Assembly (NCBI RefSeq): GCF_001306915.1
Contig: NZ_LJTC01000005.1
Location: 62,001 to 126,000 of the forward strand
Source: Pseudoalteromonas lipolytica
GTDB lineage: Bacteria > Pseudomonadota > Gammaproteobacteria > Enterobacterales > Alteromonadaceae
Reading direction: 5' to 3'
DNA: 64,000 nucleotides
The notes below the pieces were generated by a model. The model searched no databases, was not told where the DNA came from, and saw only the letters and a list, made by a program, of their open reading frames with translations. Positions 23,470 through 54,516 of the stretch are shown here, piece after piece. The first letter of the stretch is position 1. The number at the start of each line of letters is the position of its first letter. The position numbers and the translations under genes are program-made.

Positions 23470-25641
23470 CTACTGCTCTCGAGAAAATTGCGTTAAAAAT
23501 GGTATTACATCATTTGCTGGTAATGGCTTAGAAAAGTAATAGCCTTGGATATAATCGCAGCCTGCTTCGGTAAGCACCGCCAATTGCTCGCGCTCTTCAA
23601 CCCCTTCAGCAACGACCTTAATACCCAATACTCGACTCATTTGGATAATCGATTTAACCAGTGCTTCGTCACCTAAATCAACATGAACTTCATCTATGAA
23701 AGACTTATCAAGCTTGAGTACATCAACAGGGAAACGGCGTAAATAACTAAGAGATGAATAACCGGTACCAAAATCATCCAATGAAATTAAGCAACCCGCC
23801 TCTTTTAATTGAGTAAGCACATCGAGATGGTTAGTATTTTCTGGAGCTAAAACACTTTCAGTTAATTCAAAAGAGATTTGTGACGGCTTAACCCCTTGGT
23901 TGTTGATAATTTCAAGCCATGCATTACGCTCAGGATTAAACTCAGTAAACTCAAATAAAGACCGATTTACGTTAAAAACAACATCGTTATAACCTTGCAG
24001 CTCTAATGCTTTTATTTGCTGACAAGTTTTAACCAACACCAGCTCTCCAAGTGGAATAATCACTCGAGACTCTTCTGCTAACGGAATAAACTCCGCAGGT
24101 GATACCCATTGCCCTTGATTATTCCAACGCACTAAACTTTCGAATTTAGCAACCGTGTTATTTTCTATATCGATAATAGGTTGAAAATAAACTTCAATTT
24201 CGTCGTTTTTCACTGCCAAAGTTAGCTGATCTATAAGCAAGTTTTGTGTTTTTATTTTGTTATCCATTTCAGTGCAGAAAAATAAATACTCTGTACCAGC
24301 TTGCTTTGCATTGAGAGTTGCAAGCTCAGCTTGTCTTATCAAGCGGCGTGCTATTTTTTCGATTTTATGTTCAGAGGAAGAAATATAACGTTGCTCAAAA
24401 CAGCTGATCCCAAGAGTTACATATACTTGCTGGCTAATACCACCAATTGAAAAAGGCTCAACCAACAATGCTGTAATTTGCTTACAAACATGTTCTAGCT
24501 CACTAATATGTTGATAGGTTTGTAAAATAGCAAAGCTATCACCATCTATTCGTGAAAAGGCTGATTCTTTAAAACAGCTTTCAAGTCGCTCAGCTAGTTT
24601 ACATAAGACTTTGTCACCAAATGTTAGGCCATATACCGTATTAATATTCTGAAATTTATCAACATCAAAATAAATTACTGCCAAGTTTGTATCTACTTCA
24701 TCTTGATATGCAAGAGACGAAATTAAAGTACACAAGTACTCTTTAAAGTAAAAACGATTAGTTAACCCTGTAAGTTGGTCGTGGTTAGCGTGAAAATAAA
24801 TTTTTCGCTCAGCTTCTTTTTTCTCGGTAATATCTAAAATAAACGCCACATAGCAATCCTCAGCATTATTTTGCATTTTGGTTATTGATAAAAATTGCGT
24901 ATATAACTTACCTTGCTTAGTTTTATTGGTAATTTCACCAGACCATTTGCCCTCAGTATTAATCTGGTGCCACATAGCTTTATAAAAATGTGGATCATAC
25001 TGGTTTGAACTTAAAATTTTAGGGTTTTCCCCTAAGACTTCGTCCAGCGAATAGCCCGTCATTTTAGTGAAGGCAGTATTTGCATAGGTAATTTCTACAT
25101 TGTGGTCGCAGATAAAAATAGCTTCGTGGCTTTGTTCTATTAACTGATTAGAAAAATCTAGCTTAGCAATGAAACGGTCTTTTTCAATTTCACGCTGGAT
25201 TAAACCTGTAAATAACGAAAAGAAAGATTCGATTGATAACGCATCACTTATTTCATGCTGAAAAAGCGCTACCAGAATGGTATTTGTCTTGCCAGAAATG
25301 CTTTGTAATGGCACACCCACATAAGCTTCAATATCCATATCAACAAGCAATTGATCATTAGGGAATAGCTGCTGAACACCTGAATTGTAACTTGAAACAC
25401 TGCCACAGCTGACATCATTGCATGGTGTACAGCGAATATCGTAGCTGATGTTTTCAACTATTTCGTCATGCGCAACTAAAGCAATGGTTGTCGCATATAA
25501 AGTTGACTCATCGACTTGAGCCAAAAAAACATGCGAAGCACCCAGCACTTCTGATAAAGATAGGCATATTGCATTATAAAAGTTCTCACTTTTAAGATTT
25601 GAAATACTTTCAACAATACGCTTTAAATCGTATGTACCCAT
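23470..25641 (-). CDS. GAF-PAS-GGDEF-EAL cyclic-di-GMP protein
   Basis: The product has 723 residues and no membrane segments. Domains are a GAF-like sensor (about 10-155), a PAS domain (about 165-280, FICDHNVEITYANTAF), GGDEF (about 285-450) and EAL (about 460-715). The GGDEF site reads RIDGDSF and is degenerate, so cyclase activity is doubtful. In the EAL domain the metal and catalytic residues are present: FESLVRW (EAL replaced by ESL), FNVN, ELTES, DDFGTGYSSL, LKLDKSFI, VAEGVE and QGYYFSKP. It is therefore more likely a c-di-GMP phosphodiesterase controlled by its sensor domains. Confidence 0.93.
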   Translation of the reverse strand: MGTYDLKRIVESISNLKSENFYNAICLSLSEVLGASHVFLAQVDESTLYATTIALVAHDEIVENISYDIRCTPCNDVSCGSVSSYNSGVQQLFPNDQLLVDMDIEAYVGVPLQSISGKTNTILVALFQHEISDALSIESFFSLFTGLIQREIEKDRFIAKLDFSNQLIEQSHEAIFICDHNVEITYANTAFTKMTGYSLDEVLGENPKILSSNQYDPHFYKAMWHQINTEGKWSGEITNKTKQGKLYTQFLSITKMQNNAEDCYVAFILDITEKKEAERKIYFHANHDQLTGLTNRFYFKEYLCTLISSLAYQDEVDTNLAVIYFDVDKFQNINTVYGLTFGDKVLCKLAERLESCFKESAFSRIDGDSFAILQTYQHISELEHVCKQITALLVEPFSIGGISQQVYVTLGISCFEQRYISSSEHKIEKIARRLIRQAELATLNAKQAGTEYLFFCTEMDNKIKTQNLLIDQLTLAVKNDEIEVYFQPIIDIENNTVAKFESLVRWNNQGQWVSPAEFIPLAEESRVIIPLGELVLVKTCQQIKALELQGYNDVVFNVNRSLFEFTEFNPERNAWLEIINNQGVKPSQISFELTESVLAPENTNHLDVLTQLKEAGCLISLDDFGTGYSSLSYLRRFPVDVLKLDKSFIDEVHVDLGDEALVKSIIQMSRVLGIKVVAEGVEEREQLAVLTEAGCDYIQGYYFSKPLPANDVIPFLTQFSREQ

Positions 25642-26000
25642 GTTATGCCACCCAACCGTTTTTTCCGCTAAGAGTCTGACTTAACCTGAACTAAAGACGG
25701 TAAATTCTATTATATTAAGCACTTAAACACCATGGTACTCTAGTCGAAAGCGGTTAACTTTCAAACAAATAAGCATACATTTTTCATGGTTATTTCAAAA
25801 GTAAGCATAGTTTGAAGTTTACAGGTTATAAATAGAACAAAAGTTATTTTAATCTGGGGTGAATTAGTACTTAGATTTGAGTTATAGGTGTTAGGCTCTG
25901 GGTGCTAGGCAAAATACCCCCTTGGGGCTGAGGGTGGTTTCAAAACCCAACAACCGCACCGCTCGGCTAAAAACTGACAGCTGATGGCTGGTAGCTTTTT
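25642..26000. other. Intergenic, no gene seen
   Basis: This 359-bp stretch precedes the c-di-GMP gene (divergent side) and the tandem array. It holds AT-rich sequence and a short imperfect fold-back around 25914-25950, but I see no convincing coding frame or RNA gene. Confidence 0.5.
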
Positions 26001-26381
26001 CAGACATAAAAAAATTTGGCTAGGGTTCAAAAGTGGTACCAGTAGGCGGACTATTACTTGCTTTAGTGCCATGCCTCGCGTGGCGATCAAGTCCGCTAAC
26101 TACTTTTTTCAGGCATAAAAAAAACCTAACCATTTGGCTAGGGTTCAAAAGTGGTACCAGTAGGCGGACTTTTACTTGCTTCAGTGCCACGTCCCGCATG
26201 GCGCTCAAGTCCGGTGACTACTTTTTCAGACATAAAAAAACCCTAACCATTTGGCTAGGGTTAAAAAGTGGTACCAGTAGGCGGACTTTTACTTGCTTCA
26301 GTGCCATGCCTCGCGTGGCGCTCAAGTCCGCTAACTACTTTTTTCAGGCATAAAAAAACCCTAACCAATTGGCTAGGGTTC
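26001..26381 (-). repeat. Tandem array of terminator plus tRNA-Leu 3'-end units
   Basis: Three direct repeats begin at 26001, 26110 and 26227 (lengths 109, 117 and 118 bp); a fourth partial unit starting at 26345 runs into the longer tRNA fragment. Each unit holds a terminator-like stem (AACCCTAACC / GGCTAGGGTT), then GTGGTACCAGTAGGCGGACT, the 3' end of tRNA-Leu on the minus strand, then a spacer that folds (GCGGACTT / AAGTCCGC enclosing GTGCCATGC / GCGTGGCGC). The first unit has lost about ten bases of the terminator stem. The array abuts the displaced att copy. Confidence 0.85.
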
Positions 26382-26440
26382 AAAAGTGGTACCAGTAGGC
26401 GGACTTGAACCGCCACGCCCGAAGGCAACGGATTTTGAAT
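26382..26440 (-). pseudogene. Displaced 3' fragment of tRNA-Leu = left att site (59-bp direct repeat)
   Basis: These 59 bases are identical to 33577-33635, covering the 3' end of the intact tRNA-Leu gene from the CCA to the anticodon loop. Right of 26440 the sequence departs from tRNA. On its 3' side (lower coordinates) is its own terminator stem at 26357-26380. This is the classic scar of an element inserted into a tRNA 3' end: the original 3' part is displaced to the far side of the insert. Confidence 0.9.
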
Positions 26441-26499
26441 TTGTGTAAGAGCATCGTGAAAAATCTAACCCATTGATAATTAAAAATTTAATTTTTTAT

Positions 26500-26545
26500 A
26501 ACTGTGACAAAATGTTGTCACAATGGCAAAAAATCGTCACAGTTT
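26500..26545. repeat. TGTGAC/GTCACA motif cluster, left island end
   Basis: AACTGTGAC (26500-26508) and GTCACAGTT (26536-26544) are inverted repeats with another GTCACA between them. The 22 bases at 26524-26545 recur exactly at 33472-33493 near the other island end. They could be recombinase arm sites. Confidence 0.6.
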
Positions 26546-26617
26546 TTTATATTATTTACTTGAAGATAAACACTTGAGATCACGGCCTTTGTGCCATTTT
26601 AGGCGTTACTGTTAAGT

Positions 26618-26985
26618 TTAAAAAACACAAACCATCTGCACCTCAAACCGATAATTTTCTTGCTCTTCATAAACCCTAACACTTAAAACCAAGTCGCTAT
26701 GACCTTCGTTTCTCGTCCATAAATCAACTAAAACATCCCAATAAACTCTTTGCCAAACATAGACAGATAAACCCCATGCGTCTTCAGGTAAGCTAATCAA
26801 CTCCTCACCGTAATCTTCAATGTAGGAATTGATTTGGATTGAGGTAGCCTCAGGTAATTTCGACACTAATGGAATTTTGCCAATTGAGTAGTGGTATTTT
26901 TAACGAGGCACTCTACAGCGGCGTGTAATGTTTGTCGCCACTCAACAGGTATTGGTAGCTCTTTATCTTCGTCCTTGGTAACCAT
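26618..26985 (-). pseudogene. Small uncharacterised gene split by a frameshift
   Basis: An ATG at 26985 (after AAGGAAACTT) opens a 39-residue frame (MVTKDEDKELPIPVEWRQTL...) that ends with TAG at 26866-26868. The -1 frame then continues from an overlapping GTG (TAGTG) for 82 residues containing QINSYIEDYGEELISLP and WDVLVDLWTRNEGHSDLVL. The two parts together look like one small protein of about 120 residues of a family of unknown function with an EWR...DLWT.EG.SDLVL pattern. The likeliest reading is a one-base indel pseudogene. Translational coupling or programmed slippage is possible. It is opposite in strand to the cassettes. Confidence 0.6.
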
Positions 26986-27377
26986 AAGTTTCCTTATATC
27001 TATTTTTATTTTCTCTTTATTGCCAATAGCGAACCTTCAACTATAACTCCTTTATGACCCAAAATGAGTAAGTGATACGGTCTCAATAGAGCGAATTACT
27101 CAAAAGAGCGAACTTCGGTCATTCAAAATTGCTTTTCTATTTCGTCAAAGTATATTGCTTGCATAGTCAGGAAAGCGACCCAATCGCTCGTTTTTGTCCT
27201 GACACAAAAGCTAGAACTACTGCATTTTAGTTGTAATGGCAATTAGTTAAGAAGTTTGCTACAAATGAGTCATTCAGAAAAACGAGCGACGCTGTGGTAG
27301 AAAAACGCGCAATTCGCTCGTTATAAACATGTTAGCCTCTTGTGTGAGCAAAGATGTATTAATCGAATGGAATATTC
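26986..27377 (+). promoter_or_regulatory. Upstream region of the ATPase/HNH operon with repeated GAGCGA motif
   Basis: This stretch of 392 bp has no gene. The hexamer GAGCGA occurs five times: at 27089-27094, 27106-27111 and 27284-27289 on the plus strand, and at 27184-27189 and 27314-27319 on the minus strand. Two copies form the inverted pair AACGAGCGA (27281-27289) and TCGCTCGTT (27314-27322). GTTAGCC near 27335 resembles the end of an attC site but has no clear partner arm. Confidence 0.5.
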
Positions 27378-28910
27378 ATGAAATTTAAAGTTTTAGCTGC
27401 TGGAAAAAGCTGTCCAATTGACAAGCCCAATCGTGCTTATTTAGTGACGGATAATTGGGATGATTGGTTTGAATTTTCAACGATGTATACTTTGATTTAT
27501 GTTGATGGCGATCTAAATAGAAATAGAATTGGTTCGACTAAAATCGGCCAATTTAATATGGAGAAAGAACAAAGAAGGCCAAAAATACCTGATAGCTTCA
27601 ATGAATTAAGCAATGATTTTTTCTCGGTCGGTCAAGATGATAGTTTTTACGACGAATTAAATAAGCTAGGCGAAGAAATAAGGTCTCAAATACTTTCCGC
27701 CCTTAATGACATTGCTTTAGACGAAAACCTCTATGAGAAAGCAATTAAAGAGCGGGTTACAGGTACATCATTACTAAGATCAGTAAGTCATACTTCAATC
27801 AAAGGACAATATAGAAGGCTTGCCAAAGGGGGGGCTCGATTATCTGAATACTCTTTCTCATATAAATCGCCGAAAATGAGAGGCACTGAAGGTACAAGAC
27901 TCAACTTGGCTTTTGAAGTGACTCCGGAGAGTAATCCCCCAACAAATATACATGTCCTTATCGGTCGAAATGGTGTCGGAAAAACTCATTTAATTAATAA
28001 TATGATCAGCTCTCTTATTGATGATGAATCACCCGCCTCTAAAGTGGGTGAGTTTTCATCTTCGGATGAGTTTGAAGGAGAACTCTTTTCTAATGTTGTA
28101 TCAGTTACGTTTAGTGCATTTGATGAAACTGAGCCATTAGCTGAGAAAAAGGATAAATCATCAGGAATTCAATTTTCTTATGTTGGTCTTAAAAGGGTAA
28201 AAAAAGGAAGTGAGAAAAACCTTCCCCCAAAAAGTCCTGTAATTCTTAAAAATGAATTTGTGAAAAGTATTTTGGCCTGCAAGGCAGGAAACAAGATAGA
28301 GCGTTGGAAAAGAGCAATAGAAAAGCTAGAGACTGATCCAGTATTTGGCGATATTAATGTAGCATCTATTCTTAATAATGAGAATGAAGATGATTTCAAG
28401 GATATTGCAGGAAGGATATTCAAAAACTTAAGCTCTGGTCACAAAATTGTACTTCTTACAATAACAAGGCTTGTAGAAACAATCGAAGAAAGGAGTTTAG
28501 TTTTCCTAGATGAGCCGGAGGCTCATCTCCACCCACCCCTTTTATCTGCTTTTATTCGTTCTCTTTCAGATCTTTTAATAAATAGGAATGCTGTTTCAAT
28601 AATAGCAACGCATTCACCAGTGGTTCTTCAGGAGGTGCCTAGAAGTTGTACGTGGAAGCTTTGGAGAAGCGGTCATTTGTCAAAAGTTGAAAGGCTTGAG
28701 ACTGAATCATTTGGAGAAAATGTAGGAATATTGACTAGAGAGGTTTTTGGATTAGAGCATACGGATTCAGGGTTCCACAATTTACTAAACGATGCTGTTG
28801 ATAAATTTGAAAGCTATGAGGCTGCAATAAATAGCTTTAACAGCCAGTTGGGTTTAGAAGCAAAAGGTATATTGCGTGCTTTATATGGTGTGAAGAGATC
28901 CAAGACATGA
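27378..28910 (+). CDS. ABC/AAA-type ATPase of a Septu-like (PtuA-like) defence pair
   Basis: The product has 510 residues. It carries an SMC/Rad50/OLD-like ATPase: Walker A GRNGVGKT (196-203), ABC signature LSSGH (351-355), Walker B SLVFLDEPEAHLHPP (catalytic E379) and H-loop IIATHSP (H412). The first ~180 residues before Walker A are an extra domain (including YLVTDNWDDWFEFSTMYTLI) that I do not recognise; classical PtuA proteins place Walker A near the N-terminus. GGAATATTC precedes the ATG. It overlaps the HNH gene by 4 bp (ATGA), so the two are translated together. With the HNH partner it resembles the Septu anti-phage system. Function as defence is inference; ATPase assignment is firm. 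Confidence 0.88.
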   Translation: MKFKVLAAGKSCPIDKPNRAYLVTDNWDDWFEFSTMYTLIYVDGDLNRNRIGSTKIGQFNMEKEQRRPKIPDSFNELSNDFFSVGQDDSFYDELNKLGEEIRSQILSALNDIALDENLYEKAIKERVTGTSLLRSVSHTSIKGQYRRLAKGGARLSEYSFSYKSPKMRGTEGTRLNLAFEVTPESNPPTNIHVLIGRNGVGKTHLINNMISSLIDDESPASKVGEFSSSDEFEGELFSNVVSVTFSAFDETEPLAEKKDKSSGIQFSYVGLKRVKKGSEKNLPPKSPVILKNEFVKSILACKAGNKIERWKRAIEKLETDPVFGDINVASILNNENEDDFKDIAGRIFKNLSSGHKIVLLTITRLVETIEERSLVFLDEPEAHLHPPLLSAFIRSLSDLLINRNAVSIIATHSPVVLQEVPRSCTWKLWRSGHLSKVERLETESFGENVGILTREVFGLEHTDSGFHNLLNDAVDKFESYEAAINSFNSQLGLEAKGILRALYGVKRSKT

Positions 28911-29746
28911 GAAAATTAACCCGACCAGATGATGACGCAGTAGTTGTCTTTGAGGCATGTATAGATCGTATTCGTAATGCTGATCTCAAGCGCCGATTAC
29001 AATCTTGCTCATTAGAAATTGGTGAAGCATCAGTTGAATTTGACGAGAAAGCTGCTTTGGCAGAATTACATACCATTGAAGCCAAAGAAATTGTAGCGGA
29101 TGTGGTTTCAGTTGATGAGATGAAAAAGGTCTACACAGGGCGAATGGCTAAAAAATTAGCTCCTGGTAGAGTTTACTATGATAAATTAATGTCATTGCCA
29201 GAGCATGGAAGATGTCCCCTATGTTCTCAACGTGTTGTTTCTACTTTAGATCATCATTTGCCCAAAGCTCATTATCCGTCTTTAGCCGTATCCCCATTAA
29301 ATCTTGTTCCTGCTTGTCAAGATTGCAATAAAATTAAAAGTGAAGATATACCGTTAAATTCAGAACAAGAAACACTACACCCTTACTACGATGATGTGGA
29401 AGGGTTTTCATGGGTTAAAGCAAAATTAACAGAATCCATCCCTGTTGTTGTGGAATTTTATGTAGAACCTCCTGCTGAATGTGATGATGTATTAATTGAA
29501 AGGCTAAAGCACCATTTTGTGACGTTTGATTTAGCCGCCCTTTATTCTTCGCATGCAGCTGAAGAGCTTGCAAATATAGAGTTTATAGCTAGAAAAATCT
29601 TCGAAGATTCCGGCAGTATTGAACTAAAGGCGTATTTAGGAGATATGGCAAGTAGTAGAAAGCAGGTGAGTTTAAATTCTTGGCAGTCGGCTTTTTATAC
29701 TTGTTTGCATGAAAGTGATTGGTTTTGCCAAAACAGATTTCAATAA
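28907..29746 (+). CDS. HNH endonuclease of a Septu-like (PtuB-like) defence pair
   Basis: The product has 279 residues, with a helical N-terminal ~95 residues. An HNH/zinc-ribbon core at about 101-143 follows: CPLC (C103, C106), STLDHHLPKAHYPSLAVSP with D115/H116, N132 in LNLVPAC, then C137, C140 and N141 in CQDCNKIKSED. The DHxLPK...YP.LAV.P.NLVP.C..CN pattern is that of PtuB/RloF-like HNH nucleases paired with an ATPase. It starts inside the stop of the ATPase gene. The C-terminal 130 residues have no motif I can name and may contact the ATPase. An attC-like site begins four bases after the stop codon, so both genes appear to travel as one cassette. Confidence 0.87.
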   Translation: MRKLTRPDDDAVVVFEACIDRIRNADLKRRLQSCSLEIGEASVEFDEKAALAELHTIEAKEIVADVVSVDEMKKVYTGRMAKKLAPGRVYYDKLMSLPEHGRCPLCSQRVVSTLDHHLPKAHYPSLAVSPLNLVPACQDCNKIKSEDIPLNSEQETLHPYYDDVEGFSWVKAKLTESIPVVVEFYVEPPAECDDVLIERLKHHFVTFDLAALYSSHAAEELANIEFIARKIFEDSGSIELKAYLGDMASSRKQVSLNSWQSAFYTCLHESDWFCQNRFQ

Positions 29747-29749
29747 AAA

Positions 29750-29821
29750 GGCTAACAAGTTGCTGCACACGGAAAAATTACTCGCTGCGCTCCTAATTTT
29801 CCGGTGAGCAAGGCGTTAGGT
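29750..29821 (+). repeat. attC-like integron recombination site 1
   Basis: The 72 bp run from GGCTAAC to GTTAGGT. The arms fold as TTGCT-CAC-CGGAAAATTA against TAATTTTCCGGTGAGCAA, with single unpaired bases on the 5' arm (the extra G, A and A), the hallmark of attC sites. The 3' box GTTAGGT fits GTTRRRY. The next ORF starts five bases after it. Confidence 0.8.
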
Positions 29822-29826
29822 GTTTC

Positions 29827-30207
29827 GTGAGAGTCGAGGCGATAAATCAATTCGTTGGATGTATTGAACGTCTGCTAAATGGAGAACAAATAGATCTCTA
29901 CGGTGAAAGTGTATCTTCATCATTTGAATACATTGCTGCAGAAATATTAACGGAACAGCTCATAGAAGGGATTTGGTACGATGGTGTATCAAACATGGTC
30001 GCTAATGTCGAAAATTCAAATAGAGTTGTGTTTTCTGGCTACATGTATGTTTGCCTAAATCAGGAAAAATTCTGGCAAGAGCCATTCAAAGCAGTTGTTA
30101 AAGATGAGAGAGTCTCACACAACGGGGTAAGGGTTTACGTGAAAATAGGAGAGTTAGAAGGTGAAAAGGAACTACTATCAATGGAATGGCACTATAGAAA
30201 CACCTAA
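29827..30207 (+). CDS. Hypothetical cassette protein
   Basis: The 126-residue product has no recognised family. It has no signal peptide or membrane segment and is mixed alpha/beta by appearance (for example NRVVFSGYMYVCLNQEKFWQEPF). The GTG start lies five bases after an attC-like site, and the stop TAA lies inside the next attC-like box (ACCTAAC). Exact filling of the space between two attC sites is strong support that this is a real cassette gene, although no SD is visible. Confidence 0.7.
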   Translation: MRVEAINQFVGCIERLLNGEQIDLYGESVSSSFEYIAAEILTEQLIEGIWYDGVSNMVANVENSNRVVFSGYMYVCLNQEKFWQEPFKAVVKDERVSHNGVRVYVKIGELEGEKELLSMEWHYRNT

Positions 30208-30304
30208 CAAACCGCTGTAGACGCACGTGGAGCGTGCTGGGACAAAAACACGTGGGCTGTCCTCGCTTCGCTCGATATTATAGCCCCTAAGCGGGGTGTT
30301 AGCA
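30202..30304 (+). repeat. attC-like integron recombination site 2
   Basis: The 103 bp run from ACCTAAC (RYYYAAC consensus) to GTTAGCA. CTAACA pairs with TGTTAG, and ACCGCT pairs with AGCGGGGT with one bulged base. The 3' box departs from GTTRRRY at one position. It overlaps the stop of the preceding gene. Confidence 0.7.
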
Positions 30305-30391
30305 ATTTAATTTAGCATTTAGAAAATCTTTTAACCCCTTTTGGTGTGTTCGAACGTTATTAAAAAACAATAATTAAAATTTCAGGAAAAT

Positions 30392-31693
30392 ATGAACAAT
30401 AAAGTATTTAAACCCCTCATCGTTAGCTCACTCGTTCTATGCAATTATGTCAGCGCTGCAGATTGTCATGATGTGTCACAAAATATTGCCAAACAACTTG
30501 AAGATAACTACGTCATTGAAAATACAGCAACAAGGTTAGCTCAGTTAATACGTTCGCAAGTATTTTTATCTGGTTGTGAACGTCAAAAGTCATCTGAAGA
30601 TATTGCTGAATTTATGACCTTGGAATTAAACAAGATTGCAAATGATAAACATCTTTCTGTTGTTTATGATCCAAATTGGGTTAGTGAATTGAAATACTAT
30701 CGTTCGTCAGCACAAACTGAGGCGTTTGCTGATAGTCGTGTCATGGAGACTCCTATAGACAACTATGGTTTTAAAAAGGTTGAATTGCTTGATGGCAATA
30801 TTGGTTACCTCGATATAAGAACTTTCTCTGACAGTCACTTAGGAGGTGAGACGCTTGAAAATGCGATGAAATTTTTACAGCATGCCGATGGTATCATTAT
30901 TGATTTAAGGAACAATTATGGCGGTAGTCCATTTATGGTGACTTCCTTAGCAAGTTACTTCTTTGACCTAGATACAGTCCATTTATCAACTTTTGAAAGC
31001 CGTGAAAACGGTGTGTTAACTCAAACGCAAGATTGGACTTCGCCATATGTACCTGGTCCTAGGTTTAAAGAGACTCCACTTTATATCCTCACCAGCAGTA
31101 ATTCTGCATCCGCTGCAGAAGGCTTTAGCTATTCAATGCAAAGTTTGAATAGAGCAACCATTGTTGGAGAGGTAACTGCTGGCGCCGCTCATGGTAGAAG
31201 TACTGAAATAGTAAATAATGATTATATTCTCACTTTACCATCCACACGACCTGTAGATCCAAGAACAAATGACAACTGGGAAAGAAAGGGGGTGAAACCA
31301 AATATTGAAACAAGTAGTGATAATGCATTTTATGTTGCTTATGCAGAGGTGCTTAATTCCTTAATCAAAAGTAATAGTAAAAACCTTGGTTTGCATCAAT
31401 GGGTCTATCCATTGGTTAAAGCAAAATCGAGCCAATACCAGCCAAGTCAGAGTGATTTCAATCAGATAGTAGGTACGTTTGGAGAGCGCAAGATATTCCA
31501 AAAAAGTGGTAAACTCTTTTATCAATATTCAAATGATCCGGCGTTTGAAATTGAGTTACTTGATAAAAAGACCATTGTTTTTAAAGCGTTTACTGAAGCA
31601 AGACTGCAAGCAATATATAAAAATAAGCAAGTCATTGCATTGAAAATGCTCTCTTTGGGTGAGGATGAAAGAGTGTTTCAGAGAACGATGTAA
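30392..31693 (+). CDS. Secreted S41-family (tail-specific/IRBP-type) peptidase
   Basis: This 433-residue protein has a signal peptide (MNNKVFKPLIVSSLVLCNYVSA). An N-terminal helical IRBP-like segment (DCHDVSQNIAKQLEDNYV...KIANDKHLSVVY) precedes the S41 core: IGYLDIRTFSD, GIIIDLRNNYGGSP, and the nucleophile region TSSNSASAAEGFSYSM with the serine of SAS/AAE, then IVGEVTAGAAHG. No PDZ domain is evident between the parts. It should be a periplasmic or outer-membrane-exposed peptidase. CAGGAAAAT precedes the ATG. It lies between attC-like sites 2 and 3, so it is a cassette gene. Confidence 0.9.
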   Translation: MNNKVFKPLIVSSLVLCNYVSAADCHDVSQNIAKQLEDNYVIENTATRLAQLIRSQVFLSGCERQKSSEDIAEFMTLELNKIANDKHLSVVYDPNWVSELKYYRSSAQTEAFADSRVMETPIDNYGFKKVELLDGNIGYLDIRTFSDSHLGGETLENAMKFLQHADGIIIDLRNNYGGSPFMVTSLASYFFDLDTVHLSTFESRENGVLTQTQDWTSPYVPGPRFKETPLYILTSSNSASAAEGFSYSMQSLNRATIVGEVTAGAAHGRSTEIVNNDYILTLPSTRPVDPRTNDNWERKGVKPNIETSSDNAFYVAYAEVLNSLIKSNSKNLGLHQWVYPLVKAKSSQYQPSQSDFNQIVGTFGERKIFQKSGKLFYQYSNDPAFEIELLDKKTIVFKAFTEARLQAIYKNKQVIALKMLSLGEDERVFQRTM

Positions 31694-31698
31694 AAATT

Positions 31699-31797
31699 GC
31701 TAACAAGGCTGTTAACACGGACAAAAAATAGTTGGCTTTGATTGTACCTAACAAAATTCTAGCCAACTATTTTTAGCTGGTTACAACGGCGTGAAGA
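31699..31797 (+). repeat. attC-like site 3 with degenerate 3' box
   Basis: It starts GCTAACAAGGCTGTTAAC and contains a perfect 14-bp inner stem (AAAAATAGTTGGCT / AGCCAACTATTTTT). It ends GGTTACAACGGCGTGAAGA. The 5' half is a normal attC, but the expected GTTRRRY box reads GTGAAGA, so it may be inactive. Confidence 0.65.
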
Positions 31798-32199
31798 TCC
31801 GCTTTTGGCACAGAGTCATCCTTCGGCGCTAAATTGTTTCTGTCCATCATCGAGTTACAAATATAACTCGCCTTTGCCCCAAAATAAGTTAGGTTAAATG
31901 CTCTAATGGCTGCTTTGCGCGTGCAAATATATAGTTGCTTATTTAGCCAAACTTAGGTGTAATGAAAGTATAATAAACGCTGAGCAATGCAGGCCGAGCT
32001 TACATAACACTAACTAAGCTGATTAAACTAGCTAGGAAAGTGAGAGCCTCAAAAAAGCCTACTTTTTATAAGTAAAGCCATAGCATAGACAATACCAACT
32101 CTGACACTCCGAGCAGGTAACAGCTCAGTCCAACAACCGATTATGCAACACAAACTGCGTGTTGCATAAATACTAAAATGTTAGTTAGCAAGGGAATTT
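31798..32199 (+). other. Non-coding cassette remnant
   Basis: These 402 bp hold no ORF I would defend. TTATGCAACAC and GTGTTGCATAA (about 32152-32180) form a perfect 11-bp hairpin, followed by ATGTTAGTTAGC, which may be the end of a decayed attC site. AAGGGA gives the SD of the next gene. Confidence 0.45.
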
Positions 32200-32805
32200 A
32201 TGCGATTATATTTACTTATTTTGTTGCTTTTATTCTCCGTCGAAAGCCTTTCCAATGTACTTGTGAAAAGCGAACATTCTGTACCTGTGGGGATGGCTGA
32301 ATTAAATACATTCAAGAAAACCTGCGGAAACAAATGTAGCTTTACTGGGTATATCAATGTCAACAAACTGCATTTTAGTGAAGATGTAGAGTCAGGTGCT
32401 TTTTTATTGGTGCGAAGCGAAGGTGGGACAAAATCATTTTCGGTTGGCATTAAAGCAAATGAAGATGATAAAAGCGCTGAACTGGTTGTTATGTTTAATG
32501 ATGGTAAAAATAATTCTGACTCTATCGTTTTAGCAAAGTCATCGTTAAATGCTTGGGAGGGTTTCTTATTATCATGGCACGATAAAGAGTTACTAATTGA
32601 AAATTTGCGCAGCGTAAAAAAGATAGGCTTAAACAACACACCATATTCACAAATTGAGAAATCTGGGATTACATACCAAACTACGCTGACTTTTAGTCCA
32701 GATCACATTGCATATATGTTTATGGGCAGTGATGCGGAAATGTGGATCGAAATGAAAAACCAGAATTATAACTCTAGCTGGAAAGAGCGGTATGATAAAA
32801 ACTAA
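32200..32805 (+). CDS. Secreted hypothetical cassette protein
   Basis: The 201-residue product has a signal peptide (MRLYLLILLLLFSVESLS) and a mature part rich in beta-type stretches (GAFLLVRSEGGTKSFSVGIK). A close cysteine pair is present (TCGNKCS), probably a disulfide. The family is not recognised. The start has AAGGGAATTT as SD. The stop codon lies inside ACTAACAAAAG, resembling the 5' box of an attC site, as seen in the upstream cassettes. The protein is probably periplasmic or surface-exposed. Confidence 0.75.
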   Translation: MRLYLLILLLLFSVESLSNVLVKSEHSVPVGMAELNTFKKTCGNKCSFTGYINVNKLHFSEDVESGAFLLVRSEGGTKSFSVGIKANEDDKSAELVVMFNDGKNNSDSIVLAKSSLNAWEGFLLSWHDKELLIENLRSVKKIGLNNTPYSQIEKSGITYQTTLTFSPDHIAYMFMGSDAEMWIEMKNQNYNSSWKERYDKN

Positions 32806-33162
32806 CAAAAGAATTATGCCGTTGAGCAAGCTCAACTGTTACGCGATTTCGTCGCGCACCATACTCAGGAGTTACCGAATAAATACTCTAACGTGCTTTT
32901 GTCCAAATATGAGTTTGTCCAACCACCTTTTCCTTGTTAAAAACAGACCTTTAACGCTTTTACATTACCCTACTTTTAGAAAAAATGAGTAAGCACTTAT
33001 GATTGAAACCAGGCGAAGTCGTAAATACATATTAAACAAAACATACTGAACCAATAATAGGGTTTGAAAACTATAAAAGCCCACTAATGTAGGCTTTGGT
33101 AGGACTAACTACTAGGACAAAATTTTTAATTCTTTGCTTACGTAAACTAAGCTTTGCTTAAT
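32806..33162. other. Intergenic, possible decayed attC
   Basis: The first part contains GTTGAGC-AA-GCTCAAC (about 32820-32835), a perfect hairpin that could be the middle of a decayed attC site. Another short hairpin (AAAGCC / GGCTTT) is near 33078-33098. I see no coding frame. Confidence 0.4.
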
Positions 33163-33441
33163 CTAAAAATCTGTATTATCACTGATACCTGCATCATCAA
33201 ATCCCCAGTCTGACGCACCGTGGTCGTCATCAAACGTTATGATCCCATCTTCATATGATAACATAAAGCTATGGTCTGTGTGGTTTACATGACACTCATC
33301 AGTGCTCGATATTGAATCTGACAAAGCTAAGTTGTCATTAATATCTATTAACGATACAGGCTCTGTGAGAGGCTCTGAAATATCGCTTACAAGAATCCAA
33401 GCTAATAGAAGTGAGCTGTGACAAAAACAACTCATGACCAT
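33163..33441 (-). CDS. Small hypothetical membrane-anchored or secreted acidic protein
   Basis: A start at about 33441 or 33435 (MVMSCFCHSSLLLAWILVSD) gives a roughly 92-residue protein with one N-terminal hydrophobic segment and an acidic tail (ISSTDECHVNHTDH, then DDDHGASDWGFDDAG). There is no clear SD and no recognised family. The frame is open to 33477. It is the rightmost ORF of the island and is leftward, unlike the cassette genes. The coding call is tentative. Confidence 0.4.
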   Translation of the reverse strand: MVMSCFCHSSLLLAWILVSDISEPLTEPVSLIDINDNLALSDSISSTDECHVNHTDHSFMLSYEDGIITFDDDHGASDWGFDDAGISDNTDF

Positions 33442-33493
33442 TGTGACAAGTAAAAAGCAGAAACAAAACTGTGGCAAAAAATCGTCACAGTTT
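33438..33493. repeat. TGTGAC/GTCACA motif cluster, right island end
   Basis: It contains TTGTGACAAG and the near-palindrome AACTGTGGC / GTCACAGTT. The 22 bp at 33472-33493 are identical to 26524-26545. Each 22-bp copy lies 83 bp from its neighbouring 59-bp att copy. Confidence 0.6.
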
Positions 33494-33552
33494 GGGTTAA
33501 TTTTATAAAAAAATGGATGTGACTAAGAAAAACTATATTGCAGAAAAGAAAA

Positions 33553-33575
33553 AACCCGTTGAAAATCAACGGGTT
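33553..33575 (-). terminator. Terminator of tRNA-Leu, supplied by the island
   Basis: AACCCGTTGA-AAA-TCAACGGGTT is a perfect 10-bp stem; on the minus strand it is followed by a T run. It differs from the terminator stem attached to the displaced tRNA fragment, as expected if the insert brought its own. Confidence 0.88.
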
Positions 33576-33581
33576 AAAAAG

Positions 33582-33666
33582 TGGTACCAGTAGGCGGACT
33601 TGAACCGCCACGCCCGAAGGCAACGGATTTTGAATCCGTCATGTCTACCAATTCCATCATACTGGC
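33582..33666 (-). tRNA. tRNA-Leu (anticodon CAA)
   Basis: The minus strand reads an 85-nt leucine tRNA with encoded CCA. The acceptor arms GCCAGTA/TACTGGT pair (one G-U), the anticodon stem ACGGA/TCCGT encloses TTCAAAA (anticodon CAA), and a long variable arm (TGCCTTCGGGCG) marks the class II type. The T arm has GGTTCAAGT. It is the integration target of the island to its left, and its 3' part is duplicated at 26382-26440. Confidence 0.95.
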
Positions 33667-34075
33667 TTCATTTTTCTTTAACCTTCTAAACACGAGAAGA
33701 TAAAGAAAAACCACTTTAGAGCGAAAGCTTTTTTTACTGCTTTTGTCTCTATGCCAAGCATTATACAAAGAATGGGTAAGGCAGCAAGCGTTTTGTGCGG
33801 CGTCACTGATCAACCGCACAATAATTAAACAAGTTGTTAACTTTAGAGTTTGTCAGTGCCCACTACCCTACTAGTTTTATAGGTATTGAAATTTTTAAAG
33901 CTTGGATGATTAAAGATATGGTGGGTTTCGCTTTAATAAATAGTGATGTTTGCATACTCATTTTGATTATGTAATTAAGGTTAGCAAAGCCAGTTCAGTT
34001 CCCAGCATACTAAACAGCCGTTAAGTATTTCTTGTTTGCGAAGGACTTTGCTAAACTACTGCGCAATTTAATTGG
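33667..34075. other. Intergenic upstream of tRNA-Leu and the RDD gene
   Basis: About 400 bp without a convincing gene. It must hold the leftward tRNA promoter and the rightward RDD-gene promoter; I did not find distinctive elements. Confidence 0.5.
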
Positions 34076-34588
34076 ATGAGATTGTTTATGTCAGCTGAGT
34101 TTCCACGTGCCGGTTTCTGGCGCCGCTTTGCCTCTTTAATTTACGATACCTTGGTTATCATTGCCTTTGCGATGCTGACAACAGTACTCTATTTATTAGC
34201 TATTCAAGGGCTTATTTCTTTAGAGTTACTTAGCATTGGTGACGCCGAAGATGTCTCTGCTTTCATTCAAAATTCACCCTTACTATACGGTATCCGTAGC
34301 GCATTATTAGTAATAGTGAGTATCAGTTTCTTTAGTTACTTTTGGGCTAAAAGCGGTCAAACAATTGGTATGCGCGCGTGGCGTTTGAAGGTGCAAACCC
34401 TCGATGGCCATTTAATTAGCTGGCATCAAGGTGCACTTAGAGCCATTACTGCACTATTAGGTTTAGGTAACTTAGTGGTGTTGGTCGATTTTAAAAATAA
34501 GCGTGCCTTACAAGATTACATCGCAAAAACTGAAGTGATCACTTTAACTAAAGAAGAAAACAAACGTATTTATCGCTCACTTGATTAA
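34076..34588 (+). CDS. RDD-family membrane protein
   Basis: The 170-residue product has the RDD layout: FPRAGFWRRFASLIYDTLVI at the start, carrying the Arg and Asp of the family name, two to three further hydrophobic helices, and the conserved SGQTIGMRAWRLKVQT. The function of the family is mostly unknown; some members take part in transport or pH homeostasis. The ATG at 34076 and another at 34088 (MSAEFPRAG) are both possible; the second matches family N-termini better. A bidirectional terminator follows. Confidence 0.9.
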   Translation: MRLFMSAEFPRAGFWRRFASLIYDTLVIIAFAMLTTVLYLLAIQGLISLELLSIGDAEDVSAFIQNSPLLYGIRSALLVIVSISFFSYFWAKSGQTIGMRAWRLKVQTLDGHLISWHQGALRAITALLGLGNLVVLVDFKNKRALQDYIAKTEVITLTKEENKRIYRSLD

Positions 34589-34603
34589 AGGCAAATCAAG
34601 TAT

Positions 34604-53883: not shown

Positions 53884-54516
53884 CTATGAGTTTTTCCAAT
53901 CAGACAGTATACGTTGCTTATTCAGTGCTAACCACTGTAATGAGATAACTGTCGCTGCATTATCTATTTCACCCTGCTCTAGGCGCAGCATAGCTTCATC
54001 ATATGACATTACATGAGTTTTGATATCTTCATCTTCATTATCAAGGCCAAAAATACCGCCTTGATACCCTGCTAAGTCAGTGCGCGCTAAATATAAATAC
54101 AAACGTTCAGTGGTGCCGCCGGGGCTTGAAAGATACGACATCATAAATTCCAGCTCGTTAAGCTCAATACCGGCTTCTTCGAATGCTTCACGTTTGGCAA
54201 CATCTTCATAATCAGTACTGCCATCAGCCATGCCTGCAATACACTCAAGTAACCAAGGTGACTGCTTTGATGCGAGTGCCCCGATTCTAATTTGTTCAAT
54301 TAATAAAACTTGGTCAGTTTTAGGGTCATAAGGAAGTACAGCAACAGCATGGCCGCGCTCTAAAATTTCACGTTTAACTTCTACTGATTTACCACCCGCA
54401 AACAAGGCATGATGAAAACGATAGATATTAATTTTAAAGAAACCATTATAAACACGCTCAATTGGCTTTAACTCTATGTCATCATGGTTAAATTGTGAGA
54501 TTGCTGATATTTTCAT
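53884..54516 (-). CDS. nudF: ADP-ribose pyrophosphatase NudF
   Basis: The 210-residue Nudix hydrolase cleaves ADP-ribose to AMP and ribose-5-phosphate. The box is GMADGST-DYEDVAK-REAFEEAGI: the metal-binding REAFEEAG part is intact, but the first conserved glutamate of G-x5-E is a threonine. The upstream segment RIGALASKQSPWLLECIAGM matches NudF. Synteny with tolC (divergent) and yqiB agrees. It is first in the leftward run to parC. Confidence 0.92.
   Translation of the reverse strand: MKISAISQFNHDDIELKPIERVYNGFFKINIYRFHHALFAGGKSVEVKREILERGHAVAVLPYDPKTDQVLLIEQIRIGALASKQSPWLLECIAGMADGSTDYEDVAKREAFEEAGIELNELEFMMSYLSSPGGTTERLYLYLARTDLAGYQGGIFGLDNEDEDIKTHVMSYDEAMLRLEQGEIDNAATVISLQWLALNKQRILSDWKNS

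What the first reader, a model, noticed from the sequence alone, without database searches (positions are those of the whole stretch)
27378..29746. Septu-like ATPase/HNH pair with an unusual N-terminal domain: candidate new defence-system variant
Seen: two genes overlapping by 4 bp, an ABC-type ATPase (Walker A at 196-203, signature at 351-355, Walker B at 373-380, H-loop at 412) and an HNH protein with a CxxC...DHHLPK...N...CxxCN core. Known: this pairing and HNH pattern characterise Septu (PtuA/PtuB) and related nuclease-ATPase systems. Odd: about 180 residues precede Walker A, which is not the classical PtuA layout, and the nuclease has a long C-terminal region. The pair sits in a tRNA island between recombination sites, a typical defence location. 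It may be a distinct subtype whose extra domain senses phage.
Basis: partly seen in the sequence, partly recalled or inferred. Interest (0 to 1): 0.85.

Follow-up and report, generated by a model that had tools for sequence, protein, structure and literature searches.

The report
Septu-like defence pair in integron cassette
Two adjacent bacterial genes, an ATPase and a nucleic-acid-cutting enzyme, look like a Septu-type anti-virus system carried on a mobile gene cassette, and they are relatives of two genes of unknown function (ea59 and ea31) in the famous phage lambda, which makes the role of those genes directly testable.

Summary
The pair is not a new system. Both genes match, end to end, PADLOC's catalogued candidate PDC-M01. 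Both predicted folds have Septu/retron PtuA-PtuB complexes as best PDB matches, so the nuclease's long C-terminus is ordinary for PtuB. The ATPase does carry a conserved ~155-residue N-terminal domain that lies outside the part aligned to solved PtuA and matched no other family.

First, the pair is homologous to phage lambda ea59-ea31, with the same gene order and 4-bp overlap. Second, it is one integron gene cassette (27332-29815), next to an attI-like site and ended by an attC; a 98% identical cassette, ending at the same bases, sits in Salinivibrio with unrelated flanks. The array lies in a 7.2-kb insertion at tRNA-Leu; two relatives show the empty site.

Most likely a Septu-like, ATPase-gated HNH anti-phage effector; defence, target and trigger are untested.

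The parts
27378..28910 (+). ATPase gene, 510 aa; PtuA-like ABC ATPase with N-terminal extra domain (PDC-M01A / lambda Ea59 family)
27378..27842 (+). conserved N-terminal domain, residues 1-155, before the part that aligns to solved PtuA; beta-rich then helical in the model
28907..29746 (+). HNH nuclease gene, 279 aa; PtuB-like (PDC-M01B / lambda Ea31 family)
27332..29815 (+). integron gene cassette holding both genes, bounded by G|TTA on each side
   Evidence: 98.0% identical over 2484 bp to Salinivibrio siamensis L039; identity stops at both ends
29749..29821 (+). attC site of the cassette
   Evidence: R'' GGCTAAC / R' GTTAGGT, bottom-strand hairpin z -2.44; close matches on 636 of 72,556 plasmid records, one of the three looked at being 19 bases after an estX gene
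27100..27335 (+). attI-like element directly before the cassette
   Evidence: 27157-27334 81% identical (144/178) to the sequence beside the broken intI of the same genome, ending at GTTA; copies in other genomes of the genus, followed by other sequence
29816..30298 (+). second cassette: 126-aa ORF without a Pfam match (29827-30207) and its attC (about 30203-30304)
30299..31790 (+). third, probably degenerate cassette: S41-family peptidase (30392-31693) and an attC-like hairpin without a clear right end
26376..26440 (+). 65-nt copy with the tRNA-Leu 3' half, left edge of the insertion
33582..33666 (-). tRNA-Leu(caa), insertion site at the right edge

Best explanation
The pair is a Septu-like anti-phage system of the PDC-M01 / lambda Ea59-Ea31 family, carried as a mobile integron cassette. 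The ATPase (PtuA-like) assembles with the HNH protein (PtuB-like) and holds it inactive, probably through bound ATP; the conserved N-terminal domain, which solved PtuA lacks, probably receives the infection signal or gates the complex; on infection the HNH enzyme is freed to cut nucleic acid (tRNA, as for Septu EcB88 and retron-Eco7, or DNA, as reported for another E. coli Septu), stopping cell and phage. Shown here: intact genes and catalytic residues, fold kinship with PtuA/PtuB, near-constant gene pairing, homology with lambda Ea59-Ea31, cassette mobility. Inferred: complex formation, gating, trigger, target and defence itself.
For: PADLOC PDC-M01A 1.9e-211, PtuA1 profile PDLC00282 7.8e-193, PDC-M01B 6e-108, all end to end. 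Models: ATPase mean pLDDT 81.5, HNH 94.0. PDB comparison: PtuA chains Z up to 16.4; PtuB chains Z 9.0-11.1, well above the next HNH protein at 5.8. HNH gene on the same strand in 56 of 62 loci with an ATPase of 200 bits or more; the 6 misses have at most 81 bases left after the ATPase. H-to-N spacing of 16 (H116/N132) as in Septu EcB88 PtuB (H75/N91), where substitutions in the Walker or HNH motif abolished immunity (PMC13096335 passages). Mobile and patchy: 98% identity with Salinivibrio, while among 107 other genomes of the genus no HNH match exceeds about 36% identity over most of the protein. Settings common for defence genes: beside int/att in lambda and between icd and intE in one E. coli genome, integron cassette here. 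tRNA-Tyr cleavage by PtuAB systems: PMC13096335 and PMC11555353 (passages).
Against: I found no defence assay for this family. By sequence, similarity to solved PtuA is confined to the C-terminal ATP-binding part and PtuB similarity is not significant (E 0.35 at best). TM-scores to PtuA over the whole chain are low (0.24-0.40), unrelated ABC ATPases reach Z 14.4 and so overlap the lower PtuA rows (13.8-14.2), and the HNH model's best Foldseek E-value is 9.2e-4. No PtuB profile stands among the best 25 PADLOC hits of the HNH protein or of its core, and one PtuB1 profile gave no match. Lambda carries the pair, so a role in the phage's own life is possible. Expression of the cassette is not shown.
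Confidence: 0.7

Rival explanations
1. A phage or mobile-element function other than anti-phage defence: an ATP-dependent nuclease that acts in recombination, integration or exclusion of related elements (plasmids, superinfecting prophages).
For: The family sits in lambda between int/attP and the tail genes, near intE in an E. coli genome, and in IMG/VR viral contigs (38 loci of 200 bits or more). Lambda ea59 and ea31 are listed as non-essential and Ea59 as 'ATP-dependent endonuclease' (table passage of PMC10695390).
Against: The best fold matches are defence effectors; the pair also occurs on bacterial contigs and plasmids and here as an integron cassette. I did not survey the neighbourhoods of the plasmid and genome relatives, so this is weak.
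Confidence: 0.15
2. A toxin-antitoxin-like or addiction cassette that stabilises the array: the ATPase restrains a toxic nuclease and loss of the cassette harms the cell.
For: Retron-Eco7 PtuAB arrests growth when expressed without its retron (PMC11555353 passages); toxin-antitoxin cassettes are common in chromosomal integrons (recalled).
Against: No separate small antitoxin gene in the cassette; in Eco7 neither PtuA nor PtuB alone arrests growth, so the ATPase is not a classical antitoxin.
Confidence: 0.08
3. A silent or decaying passenger: the cassette is intact but not expressed in this host, with no current function.
For: The genome's best integron-integrase match is broken; the third cassette's attC looks degenerate; a Glaciecola copy lacks the first ~120 ATPase residues.
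Against: Both reading frames are intact and it is the first cassette after an attI-like element, the position that is best expressed in integrons (PMC12409362 passage).
Confidence: 0.07

Closest known systems
PDC-M01 (PADLOC-DB candidate system, PDC-M01A + PDC-M01B)
   Same: Both proteins match end to end, adjacent genes
   Different: Nothing found that differs; this is a member. Two papers in the library name PDC-M01; in the passages of one that I saw it is an unpublished candidate (PMC11811056); the other I did not open
Phage lambda Ea59-Ea31
   Same: ATPase 40.4% identical over 1-502, HNH 29.5% over 55-273, same order and same 4-bp overlap (25396-25399 of NC_001416), same PADLOC families
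   Different: Prophage setting beside int/attP instead of an integron cassette; diverged sequence
Septu type I (PtuA-PtuB, e.g. E. coli entries 8EEA, 8EE4, 8SUX)
   Same: Two-gene ABC ATPase + HNH; alignment to PtuA spans window residues 157-510, to PtuB 1-270; one PADLOC PtuA1 profile matches end to end
   Different: ~155 extra N-terminal residues before the point where E. coli PtuA starts; Walker A lysine is K202 here against K43 in EcB88 PtuA
Retron I-A (Eco7/Ec78, Ec83) PtuA-PtuB effectors
   Same: Best fold matches for both proteins
   Different: No reverse transcriptase among the four other island ORFs scanned and no retron RNA match
Integron gene cassettes with defence genes (chromosomal integrons of Vibrio; Darracq 2025 and Getz 2025, known to me through passages of PMC12409362, and a reference in PMC13096335)
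   Same: Defence-like genes as cassettes with attC, here also first after an attI-like site
   Different: Array without integrase, lodged in a tRNA-Leu insertion; a two-gene 2.5-kb cassette

Membership tests
PDC-M01 | ATPase matches PDC-M01A over its length | tested here: met
   PDLC04235 701 bits, 1-506 against 1-505/510
PDC-M01 | HNH protein matches PDC-M01B over its length, next to the ATPase | tested here: met
   PDLC04264 359 bits, 1-279 against 1-279/282; 4-bp overlap
Septu | ATPase recognised by a PtuA profile | tested here: met
   PDLC00282 PtuA1|PtuA 640 bits end to end; the other PtuA1 profiles listed match only in part, and PDLC00306 not at all
Septu | HNH protein recognised by a PtuB profile | tested here: inconclusive
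   None among the best 25 of 56 PADLOC families or the best 25 of 60 for the HNH core; one PtuB1 profile, PDLC00330, had no match in the genome; the remaining hits were not shown
Septu | PtuA fold | tested here: met
   Z 16.0 over 256 residues to 8ee4_D, 15.8 over 296 to 8eea_C; unrelated ABC ATPases reach Z 14.4, so the margin is small
Septu | PtuB fold | tested here: met
   Z 10.0 over 196 residues to 8eea_G; first chain outside the Septu/retron entries Z 5.8
Septu | ATPase starts directly with the ABC domain, as in E. coli PtuA | tested here: not met
   155 extra conserved residues; so it is filed as a Septu-like relative, not as classical Septu
Septu | PtuA-PtuB oligomer and phage defence | not testable with these tools
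   needs biochemistry and plating
Retron I-A (Septu type II) | reverse transcriptase gene beside ptuAB | tested here: not met
   four other ORFs of the insertion scanned with Pfam and NCBIfam, none a reverse transcriptase; smaller ORFs were not scanned
Retron I-A (Septu type II) | msr-msd RNA | tested here: inconclusive
   Rfam on 25600-34600 at E up to 0.1 gave the tRNA and one sub-threshold hit overlapping it; retron RNAs may not all be in Rfam
OLD / Gabija / PARIS | TOPRIM nuclease domain in the ATPase or its partner | tested here: not met
   no TOPRIM among 14 and 2 Pfam families at E up to 1; above cut-off only AAA_21, AAA_15 and HNH
Integron gene cassette | attC downstream, G|TTA boundaries, exchange as a unit | tested here: met
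Complete integron | functional intI beside the array | tested here: not met
   TIGR02249 has 8 matches in the genome, none over the cut-off; the best is broken and on another contig

The most novel reading that the evidence does not exclude
Phage lambda ea59-ea31, two still unexplained genes of the best-studied phage, encode a Septu-like anti-phage system, and the N-terminal domain shared by lambda Ea59, this cassette's ATPase and the rest of the family is a built-in infection sensor or gate that does for this branch what the retron does for Eco7. The same system moves both as prophage cargo and as an integron cassette.
Probability: 0.45. Interest if true: 0.75.

Novelty: new member of a known kind. 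Interest (0 to 1): 0.5.

Why it matters
The pair itself belongs to a catalogued candidate family, but placing lambda ea59-ea31 in that family, with PtuA/PtuB folds for a relative, turns an old blank in lambda's b region into a simple plating experiment in laboratory strains. I found no paper that makes this link: 'ea59'+'septu' 0 papers; 'phage lambda'+'b region'+'septu' 0; 'ea59' or 'ea31' 53 papers, 30 listed; at least two of ea47/ea31/ea59/defense 21 papers, 15 listed. In the two listings I judged by titles and abstract starts, and I read passages of three of these papers. The library lacks most subscription journals and bioRxiv. The locus also adds a two-gene, 2.5-kb Septu-like cassette to the known cargo of integrons, found first after an attI-like site.

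Tried and rejected
New defence type: rejected, because PADLOC models match end to end. OLD nuclease, Gabija or PARIS: rejected, no TOPRIM. Retron: no reverse transcriptase in the ORFs scanned. N-terminal domain in other architectures: three weak hits (E 2.6e-4, 0.002, 0.008) in proteins of 718-756 aa; the two that I translated, L156 and L160, look from their sequence like M3-type peptidases (recalled, not searched), so I took them as chance; the third (L158) I did not translate, nor L159, a further weak hit (E 0.007, frame of 345 aa). Pfam at E up to 10 gave only hits of 0.18 and 0.2, the PDB by sequence none. My strict regex for attC missed both sites, because it asked the R'' and R' boxes that flank one attC to be complementary although they come from neighbouring cassettes; it gave instead 31746-31894 and 54372-54493, both with poor inner boxes, which I did not take. 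Reading the cassette ends and the folds found the real sites. I tried one PtuA1 and one PtuB1 profile by number, without a match.

Rows dropped before counts: one search used 56 of 63 ATPases (7 shorter than 470 aa dropped); the 62 loci contain near-duplicates (for example L010 and L044) and leave out relatives under 200 bits. A1 (16 sequences) and A2 (15) were chosen from the window and the 19 loci; left out of A1: L044, L054, L056, L057 (partial or unrelated); of A2: L039 (N in the sequence), L051, L054, L056, L057; 64 of 295 genomes of the family have some match, but only 6, the window's own included, at E below 1e-100; the rest are mostly the shared ATP-binding part. One search fetched L161-L163, which I did not use.
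Full report
Observation. The two genes are there as described: ATPase 27378-28910 and HNH 28907-29746, ATGA overlap, motifs at the stated residues, their core residues invariant across 16 ATPases and 15 HNH proteins from records titled as several phyla. Chance is not an issue.

What it is. PADLOC's candidate family PDC-M01 matches both proteins end to end (A: 1.9e-211; B: 6e-108), and so does one of its PtuA1 profiles (7.8e-193). The first 155 residues alone match seven PADLOC profiles, six PDC-M01A and that PtuA1, nothing significant in Pfam and nothing in the PDB by sequence. PHROGs knows the two as phrog_8066, unknown function, and phrog_10378, HNH endonuclease. PDC-M01 is called an unpublished candidate of Payne et al. 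2021, and in the Bacillus cereus group 244 Septu systems were called twice, 41 of them as PDC-M01 (PMC11811056, passages).

Fold. AlphaFold2 models: HNH mean pLDDT 94.0, ATPase 81.5. The first 18 PDB matches of the ATPase by Foldseek come from retron-Eco7/Ec78, retron IA, Ec83 and E. coli Septu entries (E 7e-7 to 9e-6). The first 6 of the HNH protein come from the same kinds of entries, with E 9.2e-4 to 0.19. VIA-align: Septu/retron PtuA rows Z 13.8-16.4, E. coli Septu PtuA starting at window residue 157-158; other ABC ATPases follow from 14.4 down and overlap the lower PtuA rows, so for the ATPase domain the margin is small. PtuB rows Z 9.0-11.1 from residue 1 to 265-274, against 5.8 for the next HNH protein. 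TM-scores over whole chains are low (0.24-0.40 for PtuA rows). The N-terminal domain is beta-rich (strands at 2-6, 19-25, 36-42, 48-58, 81-85) followed by helices; its fold was not tested alone. Its conservation (mean majority fraction 0.48 over 56 sequences) is near that of the rest (0.54), and L22, W27, D29, T35, G52, K55, S83, G85, Y91, D111, S131 and R134 are kept in at least 95%. I read that as a working domain, not a tail.

The lambda link. tblastn against 50,697 phage records gives 24 records for the ATPase and 19 for the HNH protein, most of them lambda or lambda-like: Ea59 40.4% over 1-502, E 1e-106; Ea31 29.5% over 55-273, E 3e-23. In NC_001416 ea59 (25396-26973) and ea31 (24509-25399) overlap by the same 4 bp in the same order, beside int and the attachment site. 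They match PDC-M01A (667 bits) and PDC-M01B (375 bits) end to end. The closest E. coli pair by DNA (about 72%, 3 genomes cover at least 80%) sits, in the one I opened, between icd and intE. Lambda's own pair is covered to at least 80% in 68 of 5426 E. coli genomes; of the 12 rows shown, three hold only the first 870 of 2465 bases, two of them named DE3 strains, and one is split by an IS element. In passages I read, ea59 and ea31 are listed as non-essential (PMC10695390), and Ea59 had a single interaction in a lambda two-hybrid map (PMC3224144). I found no paper that treats them as defence, within the limits of that library.

Pairing and spread. Of 62 loci with an ATPase of at least 200 bits (38 viral contigs, 22 genome loci, lambda and one E. 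coli genome), 56 carry the HNH gene on the same strand; the other 6 have at most 81 bases left. By record titles, relatives occur in Enterobacter, Vibrio, Mesorhizobium, Bradyrhizobium, Paenibacillus, Bacteroidota, Campylobacterales and a cyanobacterial MAG, and 91 of 72,556 plasmid records have an ATPase match. In the window's own genus 15 of 108 genomes hold any HNH match; apart from the window's own, none exceeds about 36% identity over most of the protein. This is a patchy, mobile gene pair.

The cassette. The copy in Salinivibrio siamensis matches over exactly 27332-29815 (98.0%, 2484 bp, 48 mismatches, one gap); compared without gaps, the 100 bp outside agree in 29 of 100 on each side. 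Both ends are G|TTA, the integron cut point (recalled). The 3' end is an attC: R'' and R' boxes, a bottom-strand hairpin (3 of 200 shuffles fold as well), and close matches in 636 of 72,556 plasmid records, 450 of them at 95-99% identity; of the three looked at, one lies 19 bases after an estX gene, upstream of aadA2, on a conjugative Salmonella plasmid. A second attC follows the next ORF (7 of 200 shuffles). Directly before the cassette, 27157-27334 is 81% identical to the stretch next to a broken intI on another contig of the same genome, ending at the same GTTA. The 236-bp element around it has some match in 17 of 40 genomes of the genus, many of them partial; 7 of 40, the window's own included, hold a copy at least 90% identical over 228 or more bases. 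In the 13 of 15 loci where the match reaches its right end, other sequence follows at that point, with an ORF downstream in 12. So the pair looks like the first cassette after an attI-like site, in an array without its own integrase. That chromosomal integrons bank defence genes, and that the first position is the best expressed one, is known (PMC12409362, passages).

The insertion. In two same-genus genomes the sequence left of the array and right of it are contiguous: in L142 window 26104-26440 and 33571-33851 align to 1549-1886 and 1822-2102, sharing the 65 bp once; L143 shows the same. The 7.2-kb block is therefore an insertion at tRNA-Leu. Copies of the ~118-nt repeats left of it exist in L142 too and are older. 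I saw no integrase among its ORFs.

How it most likely works. By kinship: in Septu EcB88 both the Walker and the HNH motifs are needed, and infection leads to cleavage of tRNA-Tyr in the variable loop (PMC13096335, abstract and passages); retron-Eco7 PtuAB depletes tRNA-Tyr, while PtuAB of E. coli ATCC 25922 Septu is said there to act on nicked DNA (PMC11555353, passages). That ATP inhibits PtuAB and that PtuA forms a hexamer with two PtuB is recalled from Li et al. 2024, which is not held. Here the likely extra step is that the N-terminal domain takes the signal. Everything beyond 'both active sites are intact and the folds agree' is inference.

Verdict. Ordinary as a 'new system', since it is a member of a catalogued candidate family with a Septu-like fold; interesting because of the lambda connection and the cassette.

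Noticed in passing
window 27100-27335; L125-L138: An attI-like 236-bp element occurs, whole or in part, in 17 of 40 genomes of this genus, in some of them in several copies (for example six rows each for G296 and G326). In the up to 1.5 kb held on each side, 1 of 15 loci has a strong intI match and 1 a short weak one; most of the others show a new ORF downstream of the point where a cassette would begin.
   Followed up: partly
L060 9326-14932: The same genome has a chromosomal array of nine small ORFs on one strand, with attC-like ends by eye, beside an intI gene that lacks model positions 149-254 and changes frame.
   Followed up: partly
L039 7426-9216: In Salinivibrio the next gene after the shared cassette is an OLD-type ATPase with a TOPRIM domain, so two defence-like genes stand in a row.
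   Followed up: no
L044 4932-7009 (same gene as L010): A Glaciecola copy with its own attC lacks the first ~120 ATPase residues; natural truncation or decay.
   Followed up: partly
window 26014-26406: Tandem ~118-nt repeats, each with a degenerate end of tRNA-Leu, left of the insertion; similar copies in relative L142.
   Followed up: partly
window 26618-26866 (-): 82-aa ORF of family DUF7668 inside the insertion.
   Followed up: no
L058 3998-4867: At least two E. coli strains named DE3 hold only the first 870 bases of the lambda ea59-ea31 stretch, so they would lack the proposed system.
   Followed up: no
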